Translations under genes and position numbers: made by a program
Shown here: in pieces, positions 29,201 to 60,436 of the stretch
How the letters are laid out: each line of letters opens with the position of its first letter
How positions within the stretch are numbered: position 1 is the first letter of the stretch
Source: Siderastrea siderea
Lineage: Eukaryota > Cnidaria > Anthozoa > Scleractinia > Rhizangiidae
Assembly: GCA_964030785.1 (NCBI GenBank)
Contig: OZ034970.1
Location: forward strand, 17,319,911-17,383,910
Direction: 5' to 3'
Length of the DNA stretch: 64,000 nucleotides
The notes under the pieces: model-generated
The model's database searches: none
The model's input: only the letters and a program-made list of their open reading frames with translations
Told to the model about the DNA's origin: nothing

Positions 29201-29206
29201 AACCGC

Positions 29207-29302
29207 CGACGCAAACAGTCAGCCGGCCAAAAGAAACCCAGCATTTTCTGCCACGTCTTTCTCTCTTCTTGCACAGTTCAGGCATGCCAGACGGACAGGC
29301 AA
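29207..29302 (+). repeat. Dispersed module shared with 44640-44741
   Basis: About 95 bp from AACCGCCGACGC through AGCCGGCC, CCCAGCATTTTCTGCC and CAGGCATGCCAGACGGACAGG recurs in reverse orientation at 44640-44741 with few differences. In each place it directly abuts a different minisatellite. Confidence 0.85.
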
Positions 29303-29708
29303 GTGAGCTGAGCGCATCAGGTCCACAAGGAAGCTGAAGGAATGCTAGAAAAGTGCCTCAGCGAAGGAAAAATCCTCCGGTTCGTTTGCTACTATCGCTG
29401 GCCAAAGGCCAGTTTCCACAACTTCCATCATTCTTTCCTTACCATAGGCTGGTAAGGCATATAGGGACACATGATTTGTTACGTTTAGCGTCAAACGCCA
29501 ACTTTTACCTCCTTCTGCCTCCAATAGGCCTCTAGAGATCAATAAATCCTGATCTCAGCCCGCAAACACAAGAGAACAGGGCTTACACGCGGGCCCACTT
29601 CGAGTCACCCTTGGAAGCCTGCCTCCTCACTATATCCTTAAAACGCCCTTGGGTCATGCGAGACGGCAGGTGTTAGAAATTTCTCACATATTTTGCTGTA
29701 TGGTATAG

Positions 29709-30419: not shown

Positions 30420-31326
30420 ATGATGACACAACATACACCTCACTGGCCAAAGACTCTCCTACACTGGGCTCAGGAGAATTCTATGAATCTGAACCCGAAG
30501 AAGTATAAGGATATGCTTATTTCCTTTCTTCGAATAGACCCCAGGGTGCCTCTGCTGGAGGTTAATACCACCCCACTTGAGAAAGTGCAGACACACAAAG
30601 TATTCGGGGTCACATTATGCGACAACCTCAAATGGAATAGCAATACACAGGAAATTATTGACAAAGCATCTAAACGGTTGTATCTGATACGCCTGTGTTC
30701 CACCACCGCATCTTCGTACCATCTATAATGCCCTAGTTAGATCTGTTTTGAAGTATGCCTGCCTCGTGTGGTCCAGTAGCCTCCAGCAGTACCTTAATCA
30801 GAAAGTTGAAATGGTCCAGAAACACGCGATGCGAACTATTTATCCTTACACCAGCTACGACATGGCTCTGAGCCTGAGCTCTATTCGGAGTTGGAGGAAA
30901 GAAGGTTGAGCATTTGCTCCAGAACCTTCTTTACTAACGCCTGCCACCCCACTTCACGCCTGTTTTAAAACGTACCGTTGCGTCGCAACGAGGTGCACAG
31001 CCATAATTTGCGTCACGCTGATCACATCTCTTTGCCCCTTTGCAGAACAGAGTAATTTAAAAATAGTTTCTTTCCAGCAATGGCTTTCCAGCAAGCCCTA
31101 AAATAATGTGGGTTAATAGGCTATATCTCTAAAGACTTATTAAACTGTTTCTTAATAATGTCTTGTAAATCGTATGTTTAGAGTAGTTTCTTAGCATTTT
31201 TGTAACCCCAATCCTCTTAGATTAGCTTAAGATATATTACATTTTTGTATTTTTTATTTCCTACTATCAATTTGTAAACATGTATTAATTCATCCTCTTG
31301 ACACAAGATGTATTTAATAAATGTTC

Positions 31327-31425: not shown

Positions 31426-31454
31426 ACCCCAACCCAAACCCTATTCCTTATCCT

Positions 31455-32330
31455 AACAGTACGGAGGAGCTTTTCTGACTTACAAAACTCCAGTCAACGT
31501 TTAGGAGGGAGGAGCCTTTTGCACTGTCAAACTTATGACACAACCACTGGAAGGAGGAGCCTTTCTCAGTAAGAAAAAAATTAAAGCCAATGCTTTTGAG
31601 GGAGGAGCCTTTCTAACTTAGAAAAAAAATTGAGCCAACGTTTTCGAGGGAGGGGCCTTTCCGACTAAGAAAAATTAAGCCAACGTTTTGGAAGGATTAG
31701 CCTTTCTGACTTAAAGAAATTTAGTAGACGTCTCGGAAGGAACCGCCTTTCTGAGTAAGAGGAGCCTTTCTGACCTAAAAACTCCCCTCGACGTTTAGCA
31801 AGGAGGAGCCTTTCTCACTTAGAGGAGCCGTCCTGACTTAAAAAAAAAATCCAGTCGACATGTAGGAGGGAGGAGTCTTTCTTACTTTACAAACCTTTGA
31901 GAAAGTTGTGTGAAGTTTGCTAGGCCAGAAAGGCTCCTCGCTCCAAAGGTTGTGAGAAATCTTTCTAGGTCATAAAGGCTCCTCCCTCCTAAAGGTTGAG
32001 TGAAAGTTTTCTTAGTCAAAAAGGCTTCTCCCTAAAATAAGGTTGCTCGAAATTTTTCTAAGTCAAAAGGCTCGTCCTACCAAAAGGTTGTCTGAAATTA
32101 TGTCAGAAAGGCTCCTCCTTTGGAGGGAGGAGCCTTTCTGACATAAAAAATTCAGCATACCCTTTGGAAGGAGAAACCTTTCTGACTGAGAAAAAATGTT
32201 ATCCAACCCCTTGGAAGGAGGAGCCTTTCTGACTTAGATAAAATTTCAGGCAACGTTGTGGAGGGAGGCGCCTTTTTGACGGAAAAAAATTTCAAGCCAA
32301 CCGTCAGGAGGGAAGTAGTAAAGCCGGGAT
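31455..32330. repeat. GGAGGAGCCTTTCTGACTTA minisatellite with orientation switches
   Basis: Units of about 50-55 bp with the core GGGAGGAGCCTTTCTGACTTA run on the plus strand to about 31890, then on the minus strand (AAAGGCTCCTCCCTCC) from about 31915 to 32120, then plus again to about 32330. The second switch is an exact palindrome near 32103-32143. Confidence 0.85.
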
Positions 32331-32601
32331 TTAACAAATACCGCCTCATCCGTACACCTGTATTTACCTCTTTTAAACCACCCAGCGCACAAAGCGAAGC
32401 AAGCAGAATGGCGGGAGGCAGTACCAGCGCGGATGTGTCACGGAAAATATTTCGTATTGAAGTCACCTCAGCTATAGAATATAAGTATTTTCCAATTGAA
32501 GAAATTCTTTAAAACGAGAACATTTGGCGTGTGACCTCTGAGTGTCGCATAAATAATTTCCTATTGAAGAAATATCTGCACAAGTATATATATTTTGCAA
32601 G

Positions 32602-33468
32602 ATGGCAAACATCATTCAACAAACCGAGGAATATTTTCTGAATGGGATTTTAGTTATAATAGACTTGGGGCCGATTGTCGAAATATTGTTCAATGAATAT
32701 GTCAAGATAAAGATTTGTCAACGATTATCGCTGGGCTGGAACGAGATTCATTATGATTCACATTTTAGCGAAAATCAAGAAAGAATGGTTCATCCGTTTA
32801 CTTTCCCTCATCAAATAGACCAAGGGCTTCTGTGGATGTGCGATTCGATTACACCTCATCAACTAAAGCAAGAAATACTGAGGCTTTTCGATCGATATTC
32901 TCCGCAGAACGGAAATTTGATAGATTATTTAAAAGATTATTTGAGTAGTAGAGTCGGAATTCAATGAATACCTTCAAACGAAATATCCACTAATTCAACC
33001 AAACCTTGAGAAATGCTTTAAAGAAATTCAAGCAAAGTTTGTTGGAGAACAAGTTTCTTCAAACGAAGATAAAACAGGAAAAGTGAAGAAGCTTTTAAAG
33101 TCGCTTATGGATATGAAACATTTGGAGATGTCATACCAAGGTCTGATCGACGAAACGGCAAGTAATGAAAATGAACTTATACAACTTTTGAAGAAACTAT
33201 CTGAAGCGTCTTTATCCTGTAAGAAGAAGACGACAATGCTTGCTTCAAGTCAGGGGAGATTATTGAGAGATGCAAAGACATTTCTTTGAAAACCGATGTT
33301 CAAGCATGCTCGAGATATGTACATTTTCTAACTTCATTTTACCAGCTACTTGAAGAGTATCCAAGACTCTGTTATTGTGCAGTGCCAATTTGTACTTTTA
33401 TGTTAAATATGAAAATTATCCGGGAAATCTGTGAAGAAGAGGTTGTATTTTGGAAGAACTTATCTTAG
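32602..33468 (+). pseudogene. Polinton-associated ORF, unknown, frameshifted
   Basis: The frame opens at ATG 32602, 9 bases after TATATATAT. It runs for 121 codons, shifts frame near 32960, and shifts again near 33250, ending at 33468. Together this covers about 285 residues, acidic and helical (KKLLKSLMDMKHLEM...), with a Cys-containing C-terminal part. I do not recognise the family. The start context GCAAGATGGC equals that of the gene at 40637, which supports membership of the same element. Confidence 0.5.
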
Positions 33469-33520
33469 GACTATTTTAGATGCCGTTATTCTGCTGAACG
33501 ATGTGACTCAATGTAGACAA

Positions 33521-33650
33521 TTAATATATGGGCAACAGCGTTTCCCACTTTTTTATATGACGTCATTAATTTTATATCAAGACAGTTAATATATAGGCAA
33601 CAGCGTTTCCCACTTTTTTATATGACGTCATTAATTTTATATCAAGACAG
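33521..33650. repeat. Tandem 65-bp duplication
   Basis: Two adjacent 65-bp units (33521-33585 and 33586-33650) begin TTAATATATRGGCAACAGCG and contain TATATGACGTCATTAA. They are almost identical, so the duplication is recent compared with the decay of the nearby genes. Confidence 0.85.
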
Positions 33651-33754
33651 TTTAAATAAAGTGTTCTGGTTTTAATTCGAAATAATGTAAAACATTAGTG
33701 AAATTAAGTGTAATAATTACTCACGGCTTAATTTGAAGAGTCGTAAACAAAATT

Positions 33755-33870
33755 CCCACACCGTGAGACACCAAAAATATACTCTTTTGATTTGCACAAG
33801 TCCCACACCGTGGGACAAAAAAATATACTCTTTTTGATTTGCATAAGTCCCACACCGTAGGACACAAACA
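33755..33870. repeat. 47-bp repeats with CCCACACCGTGGGA palindrome
   Basis: CCCACACCGTGRGAC recurs at 33755, 33802 and 33849 with AAATATACTCTTTTTGATTTG between, a 47-bp period. 33871-34340 shows no gene; the minus frame at 34105-34314 matches nothing I know. Confidence 0.8.
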
Positions 33871-34339
33871 CTTGGAGCCATTTCAGGCTCAAAACGAGTT
33901 ACCCAGATCATCATTATAAAAGGGAAAATAGGATCGCGGATCGGATCAAAGGATTGGGGATCGAGGGACGAAGCACCCCCGACAAGGGTTTTGTCCTTTT
34001 TCATGACCCGTCACACAACGTCACGAGTGTCAGCCACGATTTTTGTGTCACGCAACTTCACGCGTGACTGTCACATGTTCTTTCGATTTTTGTGGCAAAT
34101 TTCATTATGGAACCACATCTAGCCCTGAAATAGGGTAGCCATCCTTATCACGAGTTGGGGATATTATTTTTGAAACACACTCACGAGTAATAAATCGTAT
34201 TTGTTTTATTTCGGGGGAGGTGAGAACTTCAAAGAGGCAATAATAAATAGCTTGCAAAGTTGCAATCATTTTGCAAGCGTTTATAATTACTTTAGAAATC
34301 TTACAAGGAAGCAAATGTATTGCTATATTTTTTACAAAT

Positions 34340-34781
34340 AGATGGCGGAATCTCCATCATTCATCCATCATCATCATCTATCATTTTCAATCTATCAAAA
34401 AAGACCTTTTCGTCGAAAGCTTCGCCTCTGAGGAGAAGCGAATCTCATCAAGGACTTTTTGGTATTCGATCAGGGCAAAATTTGCTTGTTCTGTCTTCTT
34501 ATCGTATTTCTTAAGGCTAGCCACTGCTTTTAAAATAAGACCAACCCCTGTTAAAGTTGCAATGACAACGGGGTTCAGCGTAATGCCTCCGGCTACTGCG
34601 GCGCTGATAATTAATTTGCCAGCAGAAAGATTACAAACAAAATTTTTCTTCGAAAACCGCGGTACAGCTTTTCATATCCAAAATGCTTCTTGTGGTAATG
34701 CGCATATAAATCTTTCAGAATTTTAACTTTCTCTTTAGAAAGTGTCTGGTCGATATGGTTGAAGTCGTATATGTCGCGCAT
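34340..34781 (-). pseudogene. Polinton membrane-type protein remnant
   Basis: The likely start is the ATG at 34781-34779, preceded by TATACCACA. The first 55 residues (IYDFNHIDQTLSKEKVKILK...) are followed near 34625 by a frameshift, then by a strongly hydrophobic glycine-rich stretch (GGITLNPVVIATLTGVGLIL) and a helical, charged C-terminal part. This layout resembles a putative membrane protein family commonly encoded by cnidarian Polinton/adintovirus elements. The role is unknown. Confidence 0.55.
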
Positions 34782-34983
34782 TGTGGTATACAATAACTGA
34801 ATAATGCTTATGGCGCTCTGTATTCAATCAATAGTAACAGTTCTTCATCTTTTACAACCGAAGCCAGTTCCACAGCCATAAGATCAAACACCAGTACTAA
34901 ATTAATATTTATTGTCTGTAATATAGTTGCTTGGGTTGAAGTGTAAGTGATTGATTGAGTTAAATGTGAACTGTGTTTTATTT

Positions 34984-36523
34984 TTAAAGAATAGGCGTAT
35001 ATTGACTTTTGAGCTTGAAATAGAGCACTTTTATAGTTATTATGTGGCTATAATTTGCAATGATTATTTTATCACAACCATTTAATAAGAATGTGTTTCC
35101 ATTGTTAGTATTCAAAATCCCATTTATGTCATGAACGGAATCACGCAAACGATGCCCTTTTAAAGACAGGTCTGTTTGCATTATCATTTGTCCATTTTCA
35201 ATAACAAAAGCAGTGTCATAGACACTTGGATCTACGTTTGAAACGGTTTCTTTAACGCCATAAACGATGAGATGTCCATTTACGGATGTTGTGACACGGA
35301 CCATACCGTACAGGTCGAGGTATATGAATTGCGGGGGTGAGCTATCCCATCTGTGAAGGTGGATAAGGGTTTTGGTGTACTTCTCGAATATTTTGGTTGT
35401 ATGTTTAGAAATTGAAATCGTCGTGGCTTGTGGTGTTACACTCACCTCATTCATTTCTGGTGGAAACCATTCCGCAACCATTGTGTAGTAACCAACCGGA
35501 AGTGAATGGAGGGTAAAACCGAGGCGTGACCGGTACTGGTTCGGTGAGTCTTTCTCTAACACGAGCTTGATATCGTAAGCTTTTTTGTTAATTTGATGTG
35601 AAGACTCGGGAAAATCGTTGATACCCAAAACACCGATGTTGTTTTCACTGGACGATTCATCAGCATCTTCCATCAAGTATCTCAAGGCGTCCTTTTTATT
35701 TGTCGAGCTACTGATATGTGATTCATTGAGTTGTTTAGTTATAAAGTTTGTTAGAGCTGTTGTGTTAGTTAGTTAACATTCGCGGCGGAGTTCGGATCGT
35801 CGTCGGTGTTTTAAGTGAAGTATTTTTTTTATCATTTAAGTCCAAGTTACCAGTCATGCTGTTAGTGCCATCAATTTTGATAAACTTTTTTCGCGTTTCG
35901 TTATAAATTCTGTAGTTAACAAACTCGACACATGCGGCGTCTCTCTGGTTTGATGGAAGGTCAAGATTGGTAATTAAACGATTTTTCATGTCAATGTCAG
36001 CAGCTTTATACTTTTTGTTTGTCGCTTGAGCTGCCCCTTCTGGGTCTTTTACGTAGTAGAGTGTATTATTATTCATATTTCTGCTTGCTTCCATTTTCCC
36101 GCCTTCCTTCTATGAAAGGAAGATATCTCTCGTGTCCTGATAGTTTATTACCTTTGTCAGATCACCGTGGATAGGATAAGGGTTTCTTTTTAACCGAAAA
36201 ATCTCGTACTTATTTTGCATGTCAATATCAGCGGCACCGCTGGCTCTACCCTCAGGTCCAGGATCACCTTTCTCGCCTTTTGGACCCTGCGGTCCATCTT
36301 GTCCTTGGGGTCCCTGTGGACCAGCCACCCCTTGGGGACCCTGGGGTCCATCTTGCCCTTGGGGTCCCTGTGGACCGGCCTTCCCTTGAGGACCCTTCCC
36401 CCCTCGGGGACCTATCGGACCTTGTGGTCCCGCGGGGCCTATATCACCCCTCGGCCCAGGAGGACTCACCGTTTCACTTGTCGTTTGGCTAGTTTCAACG
36501 ATTTGGCTGTTAATATACCCCAT
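34984..36523 (-). pseudogene. Collagen-like fibre protein of the Polinton, broken in three frames
   Basis: Residues about 24-95 of the first segment (36523-36110) are 24 uninterrupted Gly-X-Y triplets rich in GPQ. Then comes the phrase [12 protein letters not shown], repeated as AADIDMKNRLIT in the second segment (36094-35765), which also has a phage-fibre-like block (GTNSMTGNLDLNDKK). The third segment (35685-34984) is a beta-rich, probably knob-like C-terminal domain of about 230 residues. Frame changes lie near 36100 and 35740. Collagen-like shafts with a C-terminal knob are known in viral receptor-binding fibres, so that role is inferred. The start ATG overlaps the stop of the ATPase gene (TAATG). 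Confidence 0.65.
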
Positions 36524-37124
36524 TATATCTCTTCATCGAAATTTTTCTTCATTAATTTTTGGGGTTTGTCATAGTAAAAGAAAGAATATTTTTTATCAGT
36601 GGCGCGATCTAACGTGGTATGATCAACACCTATTTCGTCCGCAATCCGCTTGTTTCCTCGTGGAAGAAATCTGAAAATACAAAAATGGCTGCAGTTATCA
36701 CGGATATTTTTCGGCACCTTGTAGAAAGTTTGAGTAAGGTAAATAACGCAGCAGTTTCTGTGCCGCCCGTTGATAAAATAATTTATGATGCAAAGACAAC
36801 AATTTTTTGGTTGTCCACCGGTAGCTCCTCGAGTGGAATGATTTTATCGCCGGGGGCCTCAATGATCTCGTAATCAACTCTGGGGTTGATTCGTTCAACA
36901 AAGTACTGCAGAAGAGCCTGGAATTTGTTCTGGTGCAGGTGCTTTGAAAAGAGGTAAATTTTACCAAACTCTAGCAACTCATAAAGCAAATGCAGTAATA
37001 TGTTTGTTTTGCCAGAATTACTGGGTCCACAAATCAGCATCCGGAAAACATCAGCTGGCATGCAAGGGTGGCCTTGCATGTAGCTACTCTCGGAAAAACC
37101 TGGGTCATAATTTGGAATCTTCAT
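36523..37124 (-). pseudogene. Polinton genome-packaging ATPase (FtsK/HerA type), broken
   Basis: The first frame (37124-36783) holds the Walker A motif GPSNSGKT near residue 34 and ends at KIVVFAS, where the Walker B acidic residues should follow. They are replaced by AS and a stop. After a gap or frame change the C-terminal part resumes (36717-36523: NCSHFCIFRF...ADEIGVDH...FFYYDKP), as in A32-like packaging ATPases. In the family the enzyme drives DNA into the capsid. The gene lies head-to-head with the 37240 gene, with TATATAG 13 bases before its ATG, and its stop overlaps the fibre start. Confidence 0.75.
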
Positions 37125-37239
37125 TTTTTTTGGTTTCTATATAATCACGCTGGAATTATGTCAATACAACAGTGGCATAAGTTGGCTGAGGAAAAGTCGG
37201 CGGTCGATCAACAAACAAGGCATTCGCCAAAAATTTAGA

Positions 37240-38153
37240 ATGAACAAAATAAGCAGAGCTTGGTCAGCTTTCAGGGGAGGAGCTTTTTAAACCTATTACA
37301 AAAAGGCTTGATGAAAAGAGCAGCACCATTACGCAAGAGGTGGAGGAAAGTCCTGATTATGCAATGGACGAATTTGACAGAACCAACCTGTTTGGCGAAT
37401 AATTCAGACCGGATGCACCAACACCAGAACCAACACCACCACCATCACCAGAACCATCACCACCACCATCACCCGCACCACCATCACCACCACCCCCATA
37501 CCAATATGATGATGGTGGTGATTTTCCACAACCACCCCCACCGCTGATGAAAGAAAAATTCCAAACGTAAAGAGTGGGGGATGCCGGGACCGGTTGGGCC
37601 TGAATATCTCCATTAATCAACCATGTTGCAAACGGTCAATCAGCTGATCACGAAATACGGAAATGACCACAATTACATAGTAAAAAGTAAAAAATCTCGA
37701 TTACATGGTAGAACCGTGGGAGAGCTCAAAAAAATAAGAGATGCGATTTATGAAAAAAGGAAGGTAACCCAACCTCTTTCGAAACAGCTACAGGAGGGGA
37801 AGCAGAGACTAAAGTCTTCACCCCCACGCAAAAGTAAAGAATCTCCTCCAACCTCCCTGGAAAAGACTGTCATGAGTCGAAGACCTGCTGTCGAGCCTTC
37901 AGACGATGAAGAAGACTTCCCTGAACAGGATTGGGAAACCGAAGGAAGTGGCTTTGCCAGTGCAGAAGATTTGATTGCCCAACTTTATGTGAGCTTAGGA
38001 TCGATCAAAGCAGGAAACAGTTCAATAAAACTAAAAAATCAGGTATTTTCTCTGCTTGATTCACTAGTTGGACTCGGCGCAATCGACAAAAAGCAAAAGA
38101 AAAAATTGTTCGTGATTATACAGGCCAATAATGACGTTAAATCTTCTGCTTGA
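37240..38153 (+). pseudogene. Polinton proline-rich structural-type protein, frameshifted
   Basis: ATG at 37240. The frame shifts near 37275, then runs through an acidic stretch to a stop near 37400, followed by a proline-rich tract (PTPEPTPPPSPEPSPPP) in another frame and a third frame from 37623 (TVNQLITKYGNDHNYIVKSK...). The last part is helical and basic, with an acidic SDDEED segment, and ends at 38153, overlapping the next gene by 23 bases. Gene order next to the capsid genes suggests a virion component, but function is unproven. The opposite-strand Gly/Val frames here are shadows of the proline codons. Confidence 0.5.
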
Positions 38154-38890
38154 CTCGAGCCTCGCAAAATTACAAAGAACTGGCGGGCGCCAGGTTTTAC
38201 ACGATTTCACAATAAACTTTCAACCTCCGATCCACTTGGGTTCAGGAAACTATAAAGCCGTGCTAAACAAACTTATCACAATGAGATACTCATGGTACAA
38301 CATCGATACCTCTTTTGATAACAACAAAATTCGCTGGAGAAAGAAAACTGAAGAGTGGCAGACCTTGATTTTTCTGAACGGAATGTATGATTATTCATCA
38401 ACAGTTTTCTTCAGTCCCAAACCGGTAAAGTGGACCCGGAAGACAAAGACAGTGATTTCATTTTCGCTCTGTATTTCGATATGACGATATTCCGGGTTGT
38501 CATTTTGAAGGATGAAAATTATGAGCTTGACCTTTCTGGAAAAGATTTTGCTAAATTGCCTGGTTATGAAAAAAAGATTTTGACGGGAGAAAAGAATTTT
38601 GTCGGAGCAATGGTCCCGAATATCACAAGAAGCGTTAATTGGGTGTTTCTCCACTGCGATCTGATCAGCCAGCGAGCAAACGATGTTCCAAGCGATGTCT
38701 TATACAGTTTTTCAACAACAGGGCTTCAGGTCAGTTATCCGTTTCAAAAAGAACCGTATCGGCTTGAGTGGCATCCTGTGAACAAAAGCGAGATTAATTC
38801 AATAAGGATTTGGGTGACGGACGGAAGAGACAACCCCCTGGATCTCAAGGGATAGACGTTGCTGTCAGCATAATGATTGAAAAAGAGTAA
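38131..38890 (+). pseudogene. Polinton penton-like (minor capsid) protein, frameshifted
   Basis: The frame opens at 38131, shifts near 38400 (after MYDYSS), and runs to a TAG at 38853; a further shift would carry the end to 38890. The C-terminal pattern I-RIWVTDGRDNPLDL is the signature I associate with single jelly-roll penton/minor capsid proteins of Polintons and adintoviruses. Total length would be about 250 residues, in the family range. It sits directly before the other capsid genes. Confidence 0.65.
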
Positions 38891-38920
38891 AGATTTTTTG
38901 TTGTCTTTAATATATACACC

Positions 38921-39301
38921 ATGAATCATCCGAGTGAGTCGTCAAAATTTTTTGACGAAAACGCCAGAAGGTATCGATATAAACACAAGGGGTCGGGCGT
39001 GATCCGTGACACCCTTATGACTATCGGCAAAGCATTCAAAGGCACTGCAAAGAATGTGGTGAAGGCAGCCGCCGAAAAAGCTGCAAAAATAGTCGCTGAA
39101 AAAGCGGGGCAGAAAGTTGGTGAAATTGCTGTCGAAAAAGGGTCAAAACAAATTCAACAAATACTGCGAAACTGTAAGCCAAAACCACGAAAGGTGCTGC
39201 AGGATGCAAAAAAGAAACTTGAAAACATTTTGCAAAACCAAGTGTCGAAAAAACCTGCTTCATCTACCGCCTTGAAATTAAATCGAATTTTGGCAAACTA
39301 A
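38921..39301 (+). CDS. Small basic Ala/Lys-rich Polinton protein
   Basis: An uninterrupted 126-codon frame, one of few intact ones in the element. ATG follows TATATACACC by 4 bases. The middle (AAAEKAAKIVAEKAGQKVGEI) is a predicted amphipathic helix and the C-terminal third is strongly basic. This profile would suit a DNA-condensing core or membrane-active minor capsid protein, as found at this position in related elements, but there is no diagnostic motif. Confidence 0.5.
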   Translation: MNHPSESSKFFDENARRYRYKHKGSGVIRDTLMTIGKAFKGTAKNVVKAAAEKAAKIVAEKAGQKVGEIAVEKGSKQIQQILRNCKPKPRKVLQDAKKKLENILQNQVSKKPASSTALKLNRILAN

Positions 39302-39341
39302 TCATAGAATTTTTTCCCTTAGTATAACCGTTTGTGTTAAG

Positions 39342-40605
39342 ATGTTCAGAACACAGCCATATCTCTCGAAGAATGCATACGTCCGAGTGTTTTTGGACAG
39401 ACCACTCACATACCCGGGGAATAACCAAACGCAAAACAAGTCGGGCCACAAATTTACCGTAAGAGATCGGGACAATTTTTATGACGGGTGCAATACTTTT
39501 TTCCTCGTCGATTTCACGTTTGAGGTCGTGGCAAATGGAGCAAACATTGCCGCTGACACCGAAATGGCTCCGATCAACGGTTCTTTCTCATTGATCAAAA
39601 GTTTGAATCTTAAATCAGCGGGAAAAACTCTGTACGAGGCCAACAGTATCCACAAGGTTATTTTCATCAAAAGCCTGCTTGACTTTTCGGGCGATTTTTT
39701 CGAAAATCGTGGCTAAAAACCTATTTTGGTATCTTGACTCTGACGCCACCGCAGTGACTGGAGACAATGCGATGAACGCCGGAATGCGGGCAAGGGCACT
39801 TCTGTCACATGACGGTGCGACAGTTCAAACTATTATCCCTTTGAACCGATACTCCTTCTTCGAAGGTCTATCAGACAGGCTGCTGCCACCGATGCAACTT
39901 GAGTTTGAAATTGTTTTGCAAGACGACAGAGAAATGATTTTCCAAAGCGATGGAACAGCTCGAAGGATTGTCGTCCGTAGATTAGAGTTGAGGGTTCCAC
40001 AATTACGTTTTACTGGCGGAGGACAAATCCTGGTTAATGACAATTTCTTGCGACCAACCCAATGGAAATACTTGAAAGAAGTTTTGCATCTCAGCAGCTC
40101 GCGAAGGGATTCATATGGTACGTGGTTAATTACACCTGGGGTAAAAAACCCGAAGCATGTCTTCGTATTCCTTCAACAAACTCGGAAACAAAATTCTTAT
40201 ACGCAAAACCCTTATATCTTTGACATATTTAATATCGACGGTGATAACTCCGCAAAATTAACCACTTGTCGCCTTCAGTACGGCACAAACTTTTACCCTG
40301 AGTTTGATTACGACCATAACGATAAAATAGCAATTTTGAATGATTTAATCAATTTCAGATACAGAAAGAACGACTACAACAGCGGCGTTGAGCTGCAGCT
40401 CGCCAACTTTCAGGCGTTATACCCAACTACCTACTTTAATCTACGAAACACCGAAGAAAGGGTGACAGGCGACCCGAGAAAGCTCGAATTCCATTACACA
40501 CTGAATGAAGTCGCTAACGCTCAAGATTACATAATCTTTGCCGTGGTTTTGAATGAGGAAGAATTTGTGCTGAAGCAAATTGGCAATGAACTTGTCGCCG
40601 TCTAG
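39342..40605 (+). pseudogene. Polinton major capsid protein (double jelly-roll family), one frameshift
   Basis: Two overlapping frames (39342-39716 and 39679-40605) are joined by a frameshift between 39690 and 39716. Together they give about 420 residues, close to known Polinton major capsid proteins. Recognisable stretches are DRPLTYPG, the NGSFSLIKSLNLKSAGKTLY block and PLNRYSFFEGLSDRLLPPMQ. In the family this protein forms the icosahedral shell. ATG lies 14 bases after TATAAC. It has the expected place between penton-like and protease genes. Confidence 0.75.
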
Positions 40606-40636
40606 AAAAAAAAATCTCAATTAATATATACGCAAG

Positions 40637-41761
40637 ATGGCTACAACTTATCATCCATATAAAATAGCACTGACCGATGGTCAGAAAAAGAAACTACAAA
40701 AGGCTTATGTTTCGAAAACAGCTGTGGCTCTGAGGGTAAAACCGGAGCAAATTGGACGCGGTGACAAACTCCTTCTCACTGCTACTCAAATCTCACGAGT
40801 AAAAAAATCAGCCGCAGCAGGGAAAGGAATTGAGCTTAAATTAAGCCAGACCCAGATTCGAAATACTGCGCAGCGTGGTGGAAATTTGTTTTCTGCTGTG
40901 CTAGGTTTGGCACGACCTTTGATAAAGCCAGCCCTTGGGGCGTTAGCAAGTGCGGGTTTGAGTTTCGGTGCGGAAAAGGTGCTGAAAAAGATATTCGGAA
41001 GGGGTTTTGGGCCGAAGGAAATCGAGCTTTACAAACTCGTCCAGCGAATGACTCCTGATCAGAAAAAGTAAGTGGAGCGATATCTTGTTAGACAGGGTGT
41101 TGTAAAGGGAGGCGCCGCACAATACGACGGTTTACTTGGTTTGTTAGCATCTATCGGAGTACTTTTGGCTATCGGCCTAGTCAAAAAGATACTCGGAAAA
41201 GGCTTGCAAACTCAACCGCCACGACCACGACGCTCCCCGACCCCCACCTCCAAAGGGAAGAGGAATGCAAATGCGACCCCCACCTTTCTTCGGAACGTGG
41301 GATGGTTATTTAAAAAAATAAAGTTTAAAGACACGCCTATCTCCAACATTGACCTTAGAAAATGGTGCGATTTTTTGTGCATTCCAATTAAAGGTATTTT
41401 TAGCAGAAATGAAACGAAACCCCTGTCCCATTCCCCATGCATTATCAACTTAGATGATTTTGGAAGTTTGGGAACTCATTGGGTGTGTTGTTGGCATGCC
41501 AAAAATGGCACGTACGAGTATTTCGACTCATTTGGGCTTCCACTACCTTTAGAATGGGAAAAAGAAACGTTAATGCACGGAAACAACCATTTTTTCAGAA
41601 ACGACAACCAAATTCAATGGGAACAAAGTGTGAGATGTGGCTATTACTGCCTTCTCTTTTTAAACGAAAAAAACAAAGGCAAAAGTTTCGCCAACATTTT
41701 GAAAATCTTCACCAACGATGTCCTTCAAAACGAACGCATCGTAAAGAATTATTTTTCATAA
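40637..41761 (+). pseudogene. Minor capsid/core protein in frame with adenain-like protease, split by one stop
   Basis: The same frame is open from ATG 40637 to 41761 except for one TAA at 41069-41071. The N-terminal part (residues 1-145) is basic with KIALTDGQKKKLQKAY, a block typical of a small virion protein of these elements, then a hydrophobic Gly/Ala helix. The part after the stop has a second hydrophobic segment and then a cysteine protease of the adenovirus-maturation/Ulp1 family: GTHWVCCW (His), YFDSFGLP (Asp), QSVRCGYYC (Gln and Cys). All catalytic positions are present. It is either a natural fusion broken by a nonsense change or two genes that lost their border. TATATA lies 6 bases before the ATG. 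Confidence 0.7.
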
Positions 41762-41771
41762 GATATACACA

Positions 41772-41915
41772 ATGGAAGTGTACTGTGTAAAAGAAAACGG
41801 CACACCCCCAATGTGAAAGGAAGTGAAAAGGTTGTAATTACAAAGAACAATCGAAAACTCTTAAAGGCAAAATGCGCTAGTTGTGGAATAACAAAAACAC
41901 GTTTTCTGCCGGGAA
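41772..41915 (+). pseudogene. Small zinc-ribbon (DUF5679-like) ORF remnant
   Basis: ATG at 41772 follows ATATACACA. It starts MEVYCVK; a frameshift follows within ten codons, after which another frame has ITKNNRKLLKAKC and CASCGITKTRFLPG and then stops. VYCVKC, KN.R and C-x2-CG-x2-K are the DUF5679 layout seen in giant viruses and Polintons. The first CxxC pair is damaged. Confidence 0.55.
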
Positions 41916-41919
41916 ACTA

Positions 41920-42586
41920 GGCGAGCCCTCCCGAGCGGAGGGCGGTATTGTGCTTGGTAATATCGCTATGACGGTGGGTGATCTAGCCATTGAAAAAAGA
42001 ATCTCGTTTCTTGCGAAAAAGGGGCTAGAGGCTGGACGTTATTACGCGTCTGAAGCTTTGCGAGACCCCAATCTGCAAAAGAAAGCAATCAATTATACGC
42101 TAGACAAAGCCCGCCCAGTTTTTCAAAAAGTTGGCAGTGAGATGCTTGATCAAATTTCAACCAAAGTTCGACTAAACAGACGCCACAAAACAGACAGACC
42201 AGATTTAGATGGGGCGGGGATTGACATTCATACAGCGATAGGAAAACTCCCCAAACCAAAACGGGGTTGGACGTTACCGGGCCATATAATCCCCTTGAAC
42301 AGCAGGTGAAGTACGATCCCGAAACGGGGCAGATTCAGCAAATATATCAACAACCAACGAGGGCAACAGACGCTATCGCAATGCAACATGACGTGGACTA
42401 TGGTGTCTGTGCGAACCGAAACGAAAAATACAGTGAAAATGAAAAAAAATGCAAACGCAAAGCGGACAAAAAATGGTGAAGGCTCTTGACGCAGTTCCGT
42501 GAAAACAAAGGCAGTGGGGACATGCGGCAGCAAGGAACACAATAAATTTAAAACAAAAGTTGGGGTTGGGTTTTGAACAGAAATAG
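41920..42586 (+). pseudogene. Polinton protein with parvovirus-type phospholipase A2 domain, frameshifted
   Basis: The frame is helical and Ala-rich (FLAKKGLEAGRYYASEALRD...) from about 41968, then reaches LPKPKRGWTLPGH. A frameshift near 42265 gives TGPYNPLEQQVKYD (calcium-loop type) and AIAMQHDVDYGVC, the HDxxY catalytic motif of the PLA2 domain found in parvovirus VP1 and several Polintons/adintoviruses. Another shift near 42475 leads to the basic C terminus, which has a TGA. The family function is membrane breach during entry; here it is a fossil. The true start is uncertain. Confidence 0.7.
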
Positions 42587-42597
42587 TGCAGCGCCAT

Positions 42598-43131
42598 TAA
42601 TCAAACTCCTGTTTTGCGCGTCGCCTGGCTGCAAAGGATTTAGAAAGGCGATGAGAAATAGATTCCATAATTTCTTTTTTACAGGGCCAGACTTCAGAAG
42701 GGACCATTTCAAAATAATTGTGCAGAAAGCAGGGATAGTTCACTGACTTGCCGGTTTTCTCCTGAAATTGAGCAATAGCATTTCCCAGAAAAGAGATCTG
42801 GTTGAAGAAAACATTTCATAAATCTTCCATTTCCGAAGAGCATTTTTTAAATGAGCAGAGGGAGCAGAGGGAACAGAGGAAGCAGAGGGAGCAGCAGATC
42901 TGTCCGGACCCACCTCTTGGAACTGATCATCATCATATTCAAACACTCTATGGCATTCTGGGCATTCACGACAGAACTCATTTACCACATTAACTAGGTG
43001 CACCTCGCATGAAGGATAATGATTAATCCTTGGCAGTTCATTTAACTTTTTTTCCACCATTTCTGAGGTCAGTTTGTAAAGGTCGTGCTCGACCGACCCC
43101 ACACCTCGCAAACAACCAAATGGGTCGTCCA
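42598..43131 (-). pseudogene. Polinton-associated Cys-containing ORF, unknown, one frameshift
   Basis: The probable start is the ATG at 43131 (MDDPFGCLRG), 14 bases after TATATC, and not the upstream in-frame ATG. A CxxCH pair (CRECPECHRVF) lies near residue 63, followed by an acidic and Ser/Ala/Pro-rich linker. A frameshift near 42780 leads to a further helical, basic end (SHRLSKSFAARRRAKQEF) stopping at 42598. About 175 residues. Not recognised; a small zinc-binding protein is a guess from the cysteines. Confidence 0.45.
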
Positions 43132-43194
43132 TTTTTTTATTGTGTGATATACAATGAGCGCACAAAGTTTCAATAGGTTGTCAAATATTTATTA

Positions 43195-43405
43195 CAGCCT
43201 GCGAGGGTATTGGAAAGGGTTTGACTGACTTGACTTGATCCTCCTAGCCCCTCGAGAGGCATAGGGCTTCCACCATAGCTTTCCACCGAATTTTGTTGTT
43301 TGCTAGCAACTTGGCCTCGCCCCATGTCCTCCCGATGTTCTCCAGTTCCTTAGACACCGTGCGCCTCTACGACTGCTTCGGTCTGCCTCTACTTCTCCTT
43401 CCCTG
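43195..43405 (-). pseudogene. LINE 3'-end fragment inserted in the Polinton
   Basis: On the minus strand the reading GRPKQS-RRTVSKELENIGRTWGEA...IRWKAMVEALCLSRG resembles the C-terminal end of cnidarian non-LTR retrotransposon polyproteins. Two stops interrupt it. It lies between the Cys-containing ORF and the integrase, where it has replaced or displaced the integrase N terminus. Confidence 0.55.
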
Positions 43406-43439
43406 GGGTTTTCTCCTTCCCTGGGGATTGCAGCGATAA

Positions 43440-44351
43440 AAAATTTAGCCCAAGCTGCGAAAGTCTCTGAAGATGTTGCTCAAAACTGGTTGGTGAAGCA
43501 AGCTCTTTGGCAGATTTACTTACCAGCGCCGCGGTACATTCCAAGATCGAAATTTGATGTGCCTGTTCCAAACAAAGTTCACCAAGCCGATCTTCTGTAT
43601 CTCCCACACGATCGCCCACCACGCTCCCGTAAAACTTTTAAGTACGCGCTCACAGTGGTAGATGTGGCCTCTTGTTTCAAAGAGGCCGAACCGTTGACTA
43701 CAAAAGAGGCCAGAGAAGTCGCAGCTGCTCTGGAACGGATTTATAGCAGGAGCCCTTTGAGTTGGCCAAAACTGCTTCAGGTAGATCCTGGTCGTGAGTT
43801 TATGGGCGCTGTGAATCAGCTGCTTTCGAAACATAATGTCGAGGTAAGACGCGGTCGTGTGGATATTCACCGTGATCAAGCTATCGTTGAAAGATTCAAC
43901 CGCATCCTGGCTGAACGACTGTTTGGACACCAATATGGGGTTGAAATGCGCCTCCCAGACGACAAACGATCGACTGAATGGGTGGCACGATTGCCCGCTG
44001 TTATTTCAGCTTTGAATAAAGAAGTCACTCGAATGACCGATAAGAAACCCGCTGAGACCATCAAAAAGAAAACTGTTTCAGCTAAGCCCCTTATTTGAGG
44101 TTGGTGTGAACGAAAAAAAGCTCCCCTCCGGTTTAAGTGTTCGCTATCTCTACCAACCCGGTGAACTTAAAGGTGGCTGCCGAAGAGTTACCGACCCAAT
44201 CGGGTCTCTGAAAGATTACGAGATTGAAAAGATTATGATAAAACCAAATGCACCGGTTATCTATTATTTGTTTGACGGCCCAAAACGCTGGTTTGTCCGT
44301 GAAGAGCTGTTGGTTGTCCCTCCCGATACACAGCTACCGCCAGCAATCTAA
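43440..44351 (+). pseudogene. Polinton integrase (retroviral type, DDE), one frameshift
   Basis: The open part (43490-44098) shows the whole catalytic core: HQADLLYL (first Asp), VDPGREFMG (second Asp) and RDQAIVERFNR (Glu), with 34 residues between the last two. Coding similarity extends upstream to about 43440 without an ATG. TGA at 44096 plus a frame change leads to the C-terminal segment at 44106-44351 (VRYLYQPGELKGG...KRWFVREELLVVPP), a small beta domain normal for this family. The enzyme inserts element DNA into the host genome. It converges with the polymerase remnant and the two stop codons overlap. Confidence 0.8.
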
Positions 44352-44590
44352 CAATGAAACTCGATCGGCTCTGTGTGAATGCTGTCTTCCAATACCCAGC
44401 GTTTGTCGTAATATGCGCTCAACCCCAGCTTCTCCTGCTCATACGTAACCATCCTCCCGTTGTTCATACGAAAACCAATGCTTGTTGCCATGTCCTTGCT
44501 ACCATCCAACGCTGACTTGAAACGCTGCCACGTGATCACGTTCTGTTTCTTTGACATCCCCTTCGTGCTGAACTTCTTTTTTTCGCCCTC
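44348..44590 (-). pseudogene. C terminus of Polinton type B DNA polymerase
   Basis: Minus-strand frame of about 80 residues with KGMSKKQNVITWQRFK and MVTYEQEKLGLSAYYDKRWVL, ending THTEP-type residues before the stop. This is the conserved tail of protein-primed PolB in cnidarian Polintons, as far as I recall. Everything upstream (catalytic palm, exonuclease, terminal-protein region) is absent: the frame runs into a short GTTCCTCGTTCCA minisatellite at 44591-44646. Confidence 0.55.
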
Positions 44591-44646
44591 CAGTTCCTCG
44601 AACTGGTTCCTCGTTCCAGTTCCTCGTTCCAGTTCCAGTTCCTGTC
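44591..44646. repeat. Short CAGTTCCTCGTTC minisatellite
   Basis: About four units of 12-18 bp (CCAGTTCCTCGTT) lie between the polymerase tail and the dispersed module. Confidence 0.8.
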
Positions 44647-44741
44647 CGTCTGGCATGCCTGAACTGTGCAAGAAGAGAGAAAGACGTGGCAGAAAATGCT
44701 GGGTTTCCTTTGGCCGGCTGACCGTTAGCGTCGGCGGTTTG
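44640..44741 (-). repeat. Dispersed module, inverted copy of 29207-29302
   Basis: CCTGTCCGTCTGGCATGCC, GGCAGAAAATGCTGGG and GCGTCGGCGGTTT are the reverse complement of the 29.2-kb module. It directly follows the short minisatellite and precedes about 100 bp of unknown sequence and the 18S relic. Confidence 0.85.
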
Positions 44742-44839
44742 ACTGGATTCCCACGATGGAGGGCAAACTGTGCGAAAGCGAGCAGACCTCGAGCAAGGGA
44801 TGCGCTTGGCGAGGAACTCTGTTCCCCGTTGGAGATAGT

Positions 44840-45980
44840 TACCTGGTTGATCCTGCCAGTAGTCATATGATTGTCTCAAATTAAAGTTGTTGCAGTTAAA
44901 AAGGTCGTAGTTGGATTTCGGGATGGCCCGACCGGTCTCCCGAGCTGTTCTTCCTCGCAAAGACTGTGTGTGCTCTTAACTGAGTGTGCTCAGGATCTGT
45001 GACGTTTACTTTGAAAAAAATAAGACTAATCAAAGCAAGCCAGCGCTCGGAAACATAAGCATGGAATAATGGAATAGGACTTTGGTTCTATTTTGTTGGT
45101 TTCTGGAACCGAAGTAATGATTAAGAGACACAGTTGGGGGCATTTGTATTTCGTTGTCAGAGGTAAAATTCTTGGATTTACGAAAGACGAACTACTGCGA
45201 AAGCATTTGCCAAGAATGTTTTCATTAATCAGGAACGAAAGTTAGAGAACGACGACGATCAGATAAAGTCCTAGTTCTAACCATAAACGATGCCAACTGG
45301 GGATCAGAGGATGTTATTGGATGACCCCTTTGGCACCTTATGGGAAACCAAAGTTTTTGGGTTCTGCGGGACGTAAGGTTGCAAAGCTGAAACGTAAAGG
45401 AATTGACAGAAGGGCACCACCAGGAGTGGAGCCTGCGGCTTAATTTGACTCAACACGGGGAAACTCACCAGGTCCAGAAATAGTGAGGTTTGACAGATTG
45501 AGAGCTCTTTCTTGATTCTATGGGTGGTGGTGCATGGCCGTTCGTAGTTAAGGGAGTGATTTGTCTGGTTAATTTCGTTAACGAACGAACGTTACGCGAA
45601 TCCCGATTTGGTGGGACTGTTGGTATCCAACCAAAGTCACGAAGGCAATAACAGGTCTGTGATGCCCTTAGAGATTCTGGGCCACACGTGCGCTACACTG
45701 ACGATATTAGAGAGTGTCTCTTTCACCGAGAGGTGTGGGTAATCTAATAAACATCGTCGTGCTGGGGATAGATCCATGCAATTTTTGATCTTGAACGAGG
45801 AATTCCTAGTAAGCGCGTCATCAGCTCGCGTTGATTACGTCCTTGCCGTTTCTACACACCGCCCGTCGCTACTACCGATTGCAAGTTTAGTCAGGCCTCC
45901 TGACTGACACCGATGCTCTGGAAACAGAGCGCCCGATGCCGGGAAGTTGGTCAAACTTGACCATTTAGAGGAAGTAAAGG
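44840..45980 (+). pseudogene. 18S rRNA pseudogene, internally deleted and 3'-truncated
   Basis: TACCTGGTTGATCCTGCCAG at 44840 is the universal 18S start. After about 41 bases the sequence jumps (44880/44881) to TTAAAGTTGTTGCAGTTAAA, skipping roughly 550 bases. It then follows the 18S order: GGTAAAATTCTTGGATTTAC, AAACTCACCAGGTCC, ACACACCGCCCGTCGC, to GAGGAAGTAAAGG, where it stops short of the normal 3' end. Many substitutions occur in invariant positions, several as CG to TG or CA (GCCACACGTGCGC). It cannot make a functional rRNA. The loop composition fits a metazoan. Confidence 0.9.
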
Positions 45981-47660
45981 TTCTGTGCTTGTACTTGTGC
46001 AAGTCCTTGTGCTGGTGCTTGTGCCTGTATTCGTGCTAGTGCCTAAACTCGTGCTTGTGCCTGTATTGGTGCTTGTGCCTAATCTCGTGCTTGTGCTTGT
46101 ACTCGTTCTTGTGCTTGTACTCGTGCTTGTGCTTATACTGAAGCTGGTGCTCGTACTCGTGCTAGTGCTTGTACTCGTGCCTTTACTTGTGCTTGTGCTA
46201 AAGCTACTCCTTGTGCTTGTACTCCTTCTTGTGCCTGTACTCGTGCTTGTGCTCGTGCCTGTGCTGGTACTCGTGCTTGTGCCTATACTGGAGCTGGTGC
46301 CTGTGCTTGTGCTTGTACTCATGCTTGTGCCTGTACTTGTGTTCGGTCCTTGTACTCCTGCTTGTGCCTGTACTTAGTGCTCGGTCCTTGTACTTGTGCC
46401 TGTACTCGTGCTAGGTGCTTGTACTCATACTTGTGCCTGCACTTGTGCTGGTGCTTGTACCTGTGCTTGTACTTGTGATGGTGCTTGTGCTTGTACTCAT
46501 TGCTTGATGCTTGTGCTCGTGCCTGTGCCTGCACTCGTGCTGGTGCTTGTACCTGTGTTTGTACTCGCGCTGGTGCTTGTGCCTGTACTCGTGCTTGGTG
46601 CTTGGTGCTTGTGCTCGTGCCTGTGCCTGCACTCGTGCTGGTGCTTGTACCTGTGTTTGTACTCGCGCTGGTGCTTGTGCCTGTACTCGTGCTTGGTGCT
46701 TGGTGCTTGTACTCGTGCTTGTGCCTGCACCTCGTGCTGGTGCTTGTACATGTGCTTGTACTCGTGCTGGTGCTTGTGCTTGTACTCGTGCTTGTACTCG
46801 TTTTTGTGCCTGTGCTCGTGCCTGTACCTGTACCTGTACTTGCCCTGGTGCTTTTGCCTGTTCTCGTTCTTGTGCTTGTACTCGTACTTGTCCTTGTACT
46901 CCTCGTTTTACCTGTACTCGTGCTGGTGCTTGTGCCTGTACTTGTGCTTATGCGCGTGCTCGTGCTGGTGCTGTGCTTGTACTCGTGCCTGTACCTATAC
47001 TTGTGCTTGTACCTGTTTGTGCCTGTGCTGGTGCTTGCACCTGTGTTTGTACTCGCGCTCGTGCAGGTACTCGTGCTTGGTGCTTGTGCTCGTGCTTGTG
47101 TCTGCACCTCGTGCTGGTGCTTGTACATGTGCTTGTACTCGTGCTGGTGCTTGTGCTTATACTCGTGCTTGTGCCTGTACCTGGTGCTGGTGCTTGTACA
47201 AGTGGTTGTACTCGTGCTTGTGCCGGCACGTGGTGCTGGTCCCTCTACTCGCACTGGTGCTTGTGCCGTGGTTGGTGCTTGTACTCGTGCTAGTGTGTGC
47301 ATGTCGTGCTGGTGCTTGTACATGTGCTTGTACTCGTGCTGGTACTTGTGCCTTCACCTCGTTCTGGTGCTTGTACTCGTGCTGGGGATTGTGCCTGCAC
47401 TCATACTTGTGCTTGTGCTCGTGCTTTTGCTTGTGTTCGTTTTTGTACTTGTACTCGTGCTTGTGCCTGTACTCGTGCTGGTGCTGGTGCTTGTACTCGT
47501 CCTTGTACTTGTACTCATGCCTGTACCTGTACCTGTGCTTGTGCCTGTACTCGTGCTTGGTGCTTGTTTTCGTGCTTGTGCCTGCACTCGTGCTGTTACT
47601 GTTACCAGTGTTTGTACTCGTGCTGGTGCTATTGTCTTTACTCGTGCTTGTACTAATATT
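45981..47660. repeat. GTGCTTGTACTC / GTGCCTGTACTCGTGCTGGT minisatellite, 1.7 kb
   Basis: A long array of 12-18-bp units made of GTGCTTGTACTCGTGCTGGT variants begins exactly where the 18S relic breaks off. All frames are long and open (Leu/Val on +, Cys/Thr on +, Ser/Thr/Gln on -) because units lack stops; none is considered a gene. Confidence 0.9.
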
Positions 47661-48116
47661 AATGGGATGATGAACCGTGAACCAATCAGAAACAGGGCCA
47701 TAAATGCATTTGCAGGCCGTCAAATTTAATATCGCCCACCACTCACGCGTGTTTTCGCGAAGGTAGTTTCTTGTTTGGCCGTGCATATTGATAATAATTG
47801 TCAATAATAGGATCTTAAAAAAATGACCGCACTTGTGCTAACAATTCTGTCAAAGCATTCGTGAATAACCTACTGCAGGGTGGTAGAAGTGGGAACTTTT
47901 AAACTTTTTAAAGCGAGATTGAAACCCTTCCTCAAATTGTAAATATGTAAATAGCATTGTCGTAGATTTTAGACGCACACAATACATTTTTCCATTTTAT
48001 TTGGGGAAGCATTATAGAGTCGACCTCTTGCTTCATTTTTAAAGTGCATTTTTGTTTTCCTCTTCTAAGATCTTGAAAAAAAAAACCGGCATGTTATGTT
48101 ATGTTACGATCACCTA
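47661..48116 (+). other. Possible LINE 3' end with ATGTT tail
   Basis: VEVGTFKLFKARLKPFL at about 47887-47937, followed by a stop and an AT-rich stretch ending in (ATGTT)n near 48091-48107, resembles the extreme C terminus, 3' UTR and microsatellite tail of a LINE. The match is short. Confidence 0.35.
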
Positions 48117-60345: not shown

Positions 60346-60436
60346 TTTCTACTTTACAGTAAAAAATCATTTAAAACAATGTTGAAGACCAGTGACTATA
60401 GGTCTAAGGGTTTCCAGTTTTATGTTCCTTGTTCGT

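What the first reader, a model, noticed from the sequence alone, without database searches (positions are those of the whole stretch)
32585..44590. Near-complete gene set of a Polinton/adintovirus-like element, frozen as a pseudogenised fossil
ATPase, fibre, penton-like, capsid, protease, PLA2, zinc-ribbon, integrase and polymerase tail are all recognisable in 12 kb, yet nearly every one has a frameshift or stop. The small basic gene (38921-39301) is still open. Seen: motifs and breaks. Known: this gene combination is that of Polintons/adintoviruses. Inferred: one integrated copy decaying neutrally.
Basis: partly seen in the sequence, partly recalled or inferred. Interest (0 to 1): 0.75.

Follow-up and report, generated by a model that had tools for sequence, protein, structure and literature searches.

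The report
Broken copy of coral Polinton
This is a decayed, truncated copy of a virus-like jumping element (a Polinton) in a coral-type genome that also holds many sister copies with open genes; the kind of element is already known, so this copy is ordinary and the large family behind it is the more interesting part.

Summary
Window 32314-44601 is a Polinton/Maverick-type element: A32-like ATPase, collagen-headed fibre, penton, double-jelly-roll capsid, protease, PLA2, rve integrase and the last ~80 codons of PolB, nearly every frame broken. Homology starts at 32314 with an end-like AGTAGTA, though the outermost ~150 bp may be lost. Most of PolB and the right terminal repeat are gone: homology to ten sister copies reaches no further than 44601; a repeat, a cut 18S rRNA piece and a satellite array follow. 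It is not one copy: in the same 831-Mb genome the integrase gives 145 and the capsid 121 scored matches (lower bounds), 135 and 91 without a stop in the matched stretch. Nine of ten sister copies fetched have terminal repeats (87-100% alike), seven a 5-bp target duplication. Over five genes, substitutions private to the window copy fall evenly on codon positions 1/2/3 (0.047/0.042/0.049), those of sister copies do not (0.023/0.017/0.041): the family evolved under selection, this copy drifted. Polinton membership is supported; "adintovirus" is not established. Coral Polintons are already in print. Corollary, untested: such proviruses could pass for coral "Adintoviridae" in metagenomes.

The parts
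31463..32313 (.). Flanking ~47-bp minisatellite abutting the element's left limit; last 5 bp (AGGGA, 32309-32313) are a candidate left half of a target duplication if 32314 is the true end
   Evidence: TRF; blastn of 31441-32313 found no further part of the array in 1-31440 or 44001-64000
32314..32402 (+). Left terminal-repeat remnant, starting AGTAGTA; either the true end or a subterminal unit with the outermost ~150 bp lost
   Evidence: Sister TIR hits with E<0.01 all lie in 32314-32402. Base 32314 lines up with the AGTAGT end in L033, L034, L037 and by offset L035, but with a place 146 bp inside the end in L039, the closest over this stretch but one, and about 171 bp inside in L032
32569..32967 (+). 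Left-end accessory frame, function unknown (open 136 aa stop to stop, 32557-32967)
   Evidence: 91.5% aa identity over 32569-32886 to a frame in one sister copy; only sub-cut-off Pfam match
34105..34823 (-). Remains of a ~170-aa protein gene, function unknown, in pieces
   Evidence: collinear DNA in 9 of 10 left stretches fetched; open 170-aa frame in a sister copy
34811..36532 (-). Fibre gene: collagen-like head and a long C-terminal part; three frames and one stop (590 and 594 aa open in two sister copies)
   Evidence: Collagen PF01391 E=6.5e-14; tblastn pieces; open frames
36526..37112 (-). Packaging ATPase (Pox_A32 type), two frames
   Evidence: PF04665 in both pieces and E=7.7e-16 in an open sister frame; tblastn
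37038..37985 (+). Gene left of the penton, function unknown, three frames and two stops
   Evidence: tblastn with a 315-aa open sister frame
38116..38852 (+). Penton (minor capsid) gene, two frames
38921..39301 (+). Small basic protein gene, still open, no sign of codon constraint
   Evidence: open frame; 61.8% aa to a sister; private substitutions 5/3/2 at codon positions 1/2/3 of 78/80/63 eligible (p=0.61 against equal rates)
39342..40602 (+). Major capsid protein gene (about 420 aa in full-length relatives), frame break within 39670-39698
   Evidence: tblastn; DJR fold of a relative
40625..41290 (+). Gene after the capsid, function unknown, one in-frame stop at 41069-41071; right end approximate
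   Evidence: ORFs 40625-41071 and 41072-41761 in the same frame; frames of 222-232 aa with a like start in four sister copies
41320..41761 (+). Adenain/S273R-like cysteine protease part of the frame, no stop; left end approximate
   Evidence: PF00770 E=0.063 and 0.021 in a sister copy, both below cut-off; best PDB sequence match ASFV S273R E=0.036; His/Asp/Cys motif by eye (recalled)
41881..42479 (+). Phospholipase A2-like gene in two overlapping frames
   Evidence: PF08398 E=0.0018, below cut-off; E=3.2e-9 in a sister copy
42597..43180 (-). Zinc-ribbon-like gene, in pieces
   Evidence: 76% DNA identity to a sister copy over 42594-43223, with a 202-aa frame there; no Pfam family passing its cut-off
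43424..44348 (+). rve integrase, core open, frame break between core and C-terminal part (44089-44100)
   Evidence: PF00665 E=2.6e-8; tblastn; 145 matches in own genome
44351..44601 (-). C-terminal tail of type B DNA polymerase; the rest is absent
   Evidence: collinear DNA in right stretches of sister copies, none beyond 44601; sister PolB PF03175 E=1.8e-12
44602..46009 (+). Not part of the element: repeat 44641-44740 and cut 18S rRNA piece 44840-46009 that stand where the right end should be
   Evidence: RF01960, 845 bits, 571 model positions replaced by 9 bases; 97% inverted match to 29200-29299

Best explanation
A Polinton/Maverick element of a large hexacoral family inserted next to or into a minisatellite. 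From sister copies such elements are about 17 kb: the integrase (+) faces a PolB (-) tail to tail, capsid genes lie to the left, and AGTAGT... terminal inverted repeats bound the whole. Inferred from known Polintons: PolB copies the linear DNA from its ends, the integrase inserts it with a short target duplication, and the capsid set may package it. After insertion this copy lost its right third (about 4 kb of PolB and the right repeat; perhaps also the outermost ~150 bp on the left), rDNA-derived sequence now stands in its place, and it drifted with frame breaks and stops. Shown: gene set, limits of homology, missing right part, many sister copies with terminal repeats and 5-bp duplications, neutral pattern here against constraint in sisters. 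Inferred: order and cause of events, particle formation.
For: Genes. Copies in own genome: integrase 145 matches (3154 first-look candidates, 145 scored), 135 without stops in the matched stretch; capsid 121 (1911 candidates, 121 scored), 91 without, window included; PolB 43 matches from 41 scored candidates of 3481, 15 without. Ends: 9 of 10 copies fetched have inverted repeats, 150-316 bp as BLAST segments, 86.9-100% alike; 7 of 10 show a 5-bp target duplication by eye, one of them after one extra ACT. Limits in the window. Neutral decay: five genes pooled, window copy 34/33/26 private substitutions of 722/795/528 eligible sites at codon positions 1/2/3 (p=0.79 against equal rates); sister copies 148/118/194 of 6340/6976/4712 (p=3e-15); capsid and integrase, tested apart, also do not depart from equal rates in the window copy (p=0.18, 0.17), while pairs of other copies differ mostly at third positions.
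Against: The left end is not certain: in the two copies most alike over 32314-32402 (L032, L039) the matching stretch lies about 171 and 146 bp inside the end. No right terminal repeat was found in the window, so the insertion cannot be closed. Protease and PLA2 are weak in the window itself. Capsid and penton models have low confidence (mean pLDDT 63 and 60). The codon test uses 9-17 other copies per gene; single genes are small samples, and for the fibre alone the third-position rate is the highest (19/14/20 of 259/282/194, p=0.10), for the penton the lowest (4/7/0, p=0.12).
Confidence: 0.92

Rival explanations
1. The breaks are sequencing or assembly errors in an otherwise working copy.
For: Several breaks are single frame changes; reads were not available to me.
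Against: 93 private substitutions over 2045 eligible sites with no codon-position bias, three-frame fibre with a stop, PolB and right repeat missing; sister copies in the same assembly have open frames, for PolB 15 of 43 matches without a stop.
Confidence: 0.03
2. The right junction at 44601 is an assembly chimera, and the real locus continues into PolB and a right repeat.
For: The element ends in a low-complexity stretch next to rDNA-like sequence and a 1.6-kb satellite array, which are hard to assemble; the minisatellite does not resume on the right.
Against: The 18S piece is itself cut and carries changes at places I recall as conserved, so it is not a fresh rDNA unit (by eye); the contig is 60.8 Mb; the other breaks are independent of the junction.
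Confidence: 0.12
3. The copy, or its open basic gene, was taken over by the host.
For: The basic frame 38921-39301 and the left-end frame are still open.
Against: Basic gene private substitutions 5/3/2 at positions 1/2/3, no third-position excess, but only ten changes; a frame of this size can stay open by chance.
Confidence: 0.04

Closest known systems
Polinton/Maverick elements (Kapitonov and Jurka 2006, not read; vertebrate set in PMC8097293, passages read)
   Same: rve integrase, PolB, A32-like ATPase, DJR capsid, terminal inverted repeats; (AGT)2 end motifs are quoted there for vertebrate Mavericks and are seen in sister copies here
   Different: Sister copies here show 5-bp target duplications, where the vertebrate set is reported with 6 bp; this copy lacks the right end and most of PolB; collagen-headed fibre and PLA2 are present (I did not check how common these are in Polintons).
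Stylophora coral adintovirus / polinton (Starrett et al. 2021, not held; cited in PMC11071308, passages read)
   Same: A Polinton of a stony coral, so coral Polintons are already in print
   Different: There the vOTU domain is fused to PolB and the terminal protein is separate; I found no OTU hit in the one sister PolB frame tested. No sequence comparison was made.
Adintoviruses (definition in PMC11071296, passages read)
   Same: Integrase + PolB + double-jelly-roll capsid + penton combination
   Different: The defining OTU domain, integrase chromodomain and BLASTp-recognisable Hexon were not shown here.
Cnidarian Polinton MCPs (PMC10120064, passages read)
   Same: Cnidarian host; MCP reported as lying outside the main Maverick-Polinton cluster
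   Different: Whether the coral MCP here belongs with those was not tested.

Membership tests
Polinton/Maverick | rve-type integrase | tested here: met
   PF00665 E=2.6e-8 in window, 2.4e-10 in a sister copy
Polinton/Maverick | type B DNA polymerase (protein-primed) | tested here: met
   Only the tail in the window; sister copies have PolB frames of about 1,100-1,350 aa without stops in 15 of 43 matches, PF03175 E=1.8e-12; protein priming itself not testable here
Polinton/Maverick | A32/FtsK-HerA packaging ATPase | tested here: met
   PF04665 in both window pieces, 7.7e-16 in a sister copy
Polinton/Maverick | double-jelly-roll major capsid protein | tested here: met
   Model of the database relative P0004: Foldseek PDB best E 1e-13 (iridovirus capsid), PBCV-1, faustovirus, PRD1 and mavirus MCPs in the first 50 rows; 8-11% identity; model pLDDT 63
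Polinton/Maverick | single-jelly-roll penton | tested here: inconclusive
Polinton/Maverick | adenain-like protease | tested here: inconclusive
   PF00770 below cut-off (0.063 window, 0.021 sister); ASFV S273R E=0.036; motif by eye
Polinton/Maverick | terminal inverted repeats and 5-6 bp target duplication (this copy) | tested here: inconclusive
   End-like AGTAGTA at 32314, possibly ~150 bp inside the true end; right end absent, so no pair
Polinton/Maverick | terminal inverted repeats and 5-6 bp target duplication (family) | tested here: met
   Inverted repeats in 9 of 10 copies fetched; 5-bp duplication in 7 of 10 by eye
Adintovirus | PolB with N-terminal OTU-like domain | tested here: inconclusive
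   One sister PolB frame of 1114 aa: no OTU family at E<=0.1; remote domains can escape Pfam
Adintovirus | integrase with C-terminal chromodomain | tested here: inconclusive
   One sister integrase of 313 aa: no chromodomain family at E<=1; rve plus two matches below cut-off
Adintovirus | Hexon recognisable by BLASTp to adintovirus Hexon | not tested
   No adintovirus Hexon was compared; the window capsid and the A1 profile found no confirmed relative in viral contigs

The most novel reading that the evidence does not exclude
The family behind this fossil is still mobile and still makes capsids in a living coral, so that part of the 'Adintoviridae' signal reported from coral metagenomes (for example the disease-associated vMAG001 of PMC12743298) comes from host-encoded copies rather than from an outside virus.
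Probability: 0.25. Interest if true: 0.75.

Novelty: new member of a known kind. Interest (0 to 1): 0.33.

Why it matters
As a single locus it is ordinary. As an entry into its family it points to a chromosome-scale animal genome with over a hundred capsid-coding Polinton copies of graded age (terminal repeats 87-100% alike in nine copies, identical in one). That makes the open question whether Polintons form particles in animals testable by observation in living coral tissue, and it warns that virus-hunting in coral metagenomes should subtract host proviruses.

Tried and rejected
No free-virus relatives found: window capsid and integrase pieces and the capsid and penton alignments gave no confirmed relative in viral contigs; the integrase piece and capsid P0020 gave none in phages. 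Pfam gave nothing for the window capsid or for P0004, P0020, P0117; PDB sequence searches of the capsid and the penton profile gave nothing of use. PHROGs gave a terminase for the second ATPase half (9.4e-11), a weak ATPase hit for the first half, transposases for the integrase (best 3.9e-4) and a few near-chance hits.

One search used a wrong reading frame for the basic gene; one search repeats it with the right frame and is the one cited. There the copy serving as reference was not used a second time for that gene, and the tenth left stretch (L040) was not used. The counts of matches with and without stops, the 29 capsid-integrase pairs from which I chose ten copies, and the target duplications were made by eye. 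Capsid copies at least 80% like the window's carry stops in 15 of 32, the rest in 15 of 88 (Fisher p=0.0016; counts by hand, the 80% line set after seeing the list).

An exact left end at 32314 was my first reading, made on re-checking, show that it may be a subterminal unit, and the claim is lowered. Considered and dropped: a TIR role for the inverted pair 29200-29310 / 44630-44740, because it lies outside the homology to sister copies. Whether the 18S piece is frequent in the genome stayed open because the DNA search did not complete.

Literature: the listings showed no title on Polinton expansion in corals; but PMC11071308 (passages) names a Stylophora polinton, so I make no claim of priority.
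Full report
What is there. The stretch 32314-44601 carries, from left to right: a left terminal-repeat remnant, an accessory frame, remains of a ~170-aa gene, a fibre gene with a collagen head, a Pox_A32-type ATPase, a gene of unknown function, a penton gene, a small basic gene, the major capsid gene, a further gene of unknown function, an adenain-like protease, a PLA2-like gene, a zinc-ribbon-like gene, an rve integrase and the last ~80 codons of PolB. Matches of the window pieces themselves: Pox_A32 1.3e-4 and 8.1e-6, Collagen 6.5e-14, rve 2.6e-8, Phospholip_A2_4 0.0018, Peptidase_C5 0.063; the first Pox_A32 piece and the last two lie below Pfam's cut-offs. In a sister copy PLA2 reaches 3.2e-9 while the protease stays weak at 0.021; the protease's best PDB match is ASFV S273R at 0.036.

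Host. The window lies in an 831-Mb assembly of 402 contigs. A TMEM229B-like exon at 20775-21383 has Nematostella vectensis as its nearest named relative, 68%, with unnamed ones at 81-82%. With the Oculina hit this points to a hexacoral, probably a stony coral; the species is not known to me.

A family, not one copy. In the same genome the integrase frame gives 145 scored matches (3154 first-look candidates), 135 without a stop in the matched stretch; the capsid 121 (1911 candidates), 91 without, window included; a sister PolB 43 matches from 41 scored candidates (of 3481), 15 without (stops counted by eye, frame shifts not seen by this count). The tool calls such counts lower bounds. Capsid copies nearest to the window's (>=80% aa, a line I drew after seeing the list) carry stops more often, 15 of 32, than the rest, 15 of 88.

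Ends. From ten copies with both capsid and integrase I fetched left and right stretches. Nine have inverted terminal repeats right of PolB and left of the fibre side, 150-316 bp as BLAST segments, 86.9-100% identical. Seven of the ten show a 5-bp target duplication by eye: six directly at AGTAGT.../...ACTACT, one after one extra ACT; two with repeats do not show it and one has no repeat match. (AGT)2//(ACT)2 ends are quoted for vertebrate Mavericks, there with 6-bp duplications (PMC8097293, passages). In the window, sister repeats match with E<0.01 only within 32314-32402. Base 32314, the start of an AGTAGTA next to a ~47-bp minisatellite, lines up with the very end in L033, L034, L037 and, by offset, L035; but in the two copies most alike over this stretch, L032 and L039, it lines up about 171 and 146 bp inside the end, with a subterminal unit. 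So 32314 is the limit of homology and either the true end or ~150 bp short of it. On the right, DNA homology ends at exactly 44601 in 6 of 10 stretches, earlier in 4 (44323-44596), later in none. A sister PolB frame (1114 aa, without the last part) finds nothing in the window at E<=1e-3, rows starting in the array 45900-47700 not shown. To the right follow a repeat that recurs inverted at 29200-29299 with 97% identity, an 18S rRNA piece in which 571 model positions are replaced by 9 bases, and a satellite array.

Decay. Against open frames of sister copies or a database relative, the ATPase, penton, capsid and integrase are each split over two frames, the fibre over three with a stop, the gene before the penton over three with two stops; the basic gene is open. 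For five genes (basic, ATPase, penton, fibre, the ~170-aa gene; nine other copies each) I counted substitutions private to one copy at sites where all others agree: window copy 34/33/26 of 722/795/528 eligible sites at codon positions 1/2/3 (rates 0.047/0.042/0.049, p=0.79 against equal rates); other copies 148/118/194 of 6340/6976/4712 (0.023/0.017/0.041, p=3e-15). Single genes of the window copy do not depart from equal rates either, p 0.10 to 0.98, but are small: fibre 19/14/20 has its highest rate at third positions, penton 4/7/0 its lowest. Capsid (11 others) and integrase (17 others): window 9/14/4 and 5/1/1, p=0.18 and 0.17, while pairs of other copies differ mostly at third positions (0.050/0.055/0.131 and 0.037/0.030/0.130). 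The basic gene alone is 5/3/2: open, but without sign of constraint. So the copy has drifted, and the family evolved under selection.

Mechanism. By analogy with Polintons (established knowledge): PolB copies the linear DNA from its ends, the integrase inserts it with a short duplication, and capsid genes may package it. Shown here: the gene set, the ends and duplications in sisters, the missing right part, the neutral pattern. Inferred: that the right end was lost through rearrangement with rDNA-derived sequence, when it happened, and that the family makes particles.

What is known. Cnidarian and coral Polintons are in print: a Stylophora pistillata polinton/adintovirus (PMC11071308, passages), Nematostella and Hydra Polintons (PMC4028283, passages), and cnidarian MCPs lying outside the main Maverick-Polinton cluster (PMC10120064, passages). 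Membership in Polinton/Maverick is well supported; membership in adintoviruses, defined by OTU-bearing PolB, recognisable Hexon and an integrase chromodomain (PMC11071296, passages), is not shown: Pfam found neither domain in the one sister frame tested for each. A coral-disease study reports an Adintoviridae vMAG as putatively host-infecting after a virus call with provirus finding disabled (PMC12743298, passages); genomes like this one could supply such reads, which I have not tested, and the rise reported there in diseased colonies is not explained by this alone.

Verdict. A decayed, right-truncated member of a large coral Polinton family: a new member of a known kind. Interest is modest for the copy and higher for the family.

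Noticed in passing
44840-46009: Cut 18S rRNA gene piece on the + strand (RF01960, 845 bits; 571 model positions replaced by 9 bases near the 5' side) close to the right of the element remnant.
   Followed up: partly
29200-29299 and 44641-44740: Inverted pair, 97% identical over 100 bp, flanking the element region from outside; possibly rDNA spacer or a dispersed repeat.
   Followed up: partly
45984-47594: 1.6-kb satellite array of ~6/18-bp TGTGCT-type units beginning where the 18S piece ends.
   Followed up: no
31463-32313: ~47-bp minisatellite ending at the element's left limit; part of it lies in inverted orientation.
   Followed up: partly
L032, L039 (left stretches): The terminal repeats of some sister copies hold a second, subterminal unit about 150-170 bp inside the end.
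   Followed up: partly
L024, L027, L030 (right stretches): The integrase frames of three of ten sister copies end at the same place before the C-terminal part, hinting at a shared or recurrent frame change.
   Followed up: no
43432-44089 against L029; 39667-40602 against L020: The same sister copy is 97.0% like the window in the integrase but 91.5% in the capsid (DNA), which may mean mosaic exchange between copies or faster capsid change.
   Followed up: no
30420-30909: Fragments that read like a non-LTR reverse transcriptase C-terminal part (by eye from the ORF list; recalled likeness).
   Followed up: no
20775-21383: TMEM229B-like host exon (PF06541 in its relatives), useful as a host marker.
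   Followed up: partly
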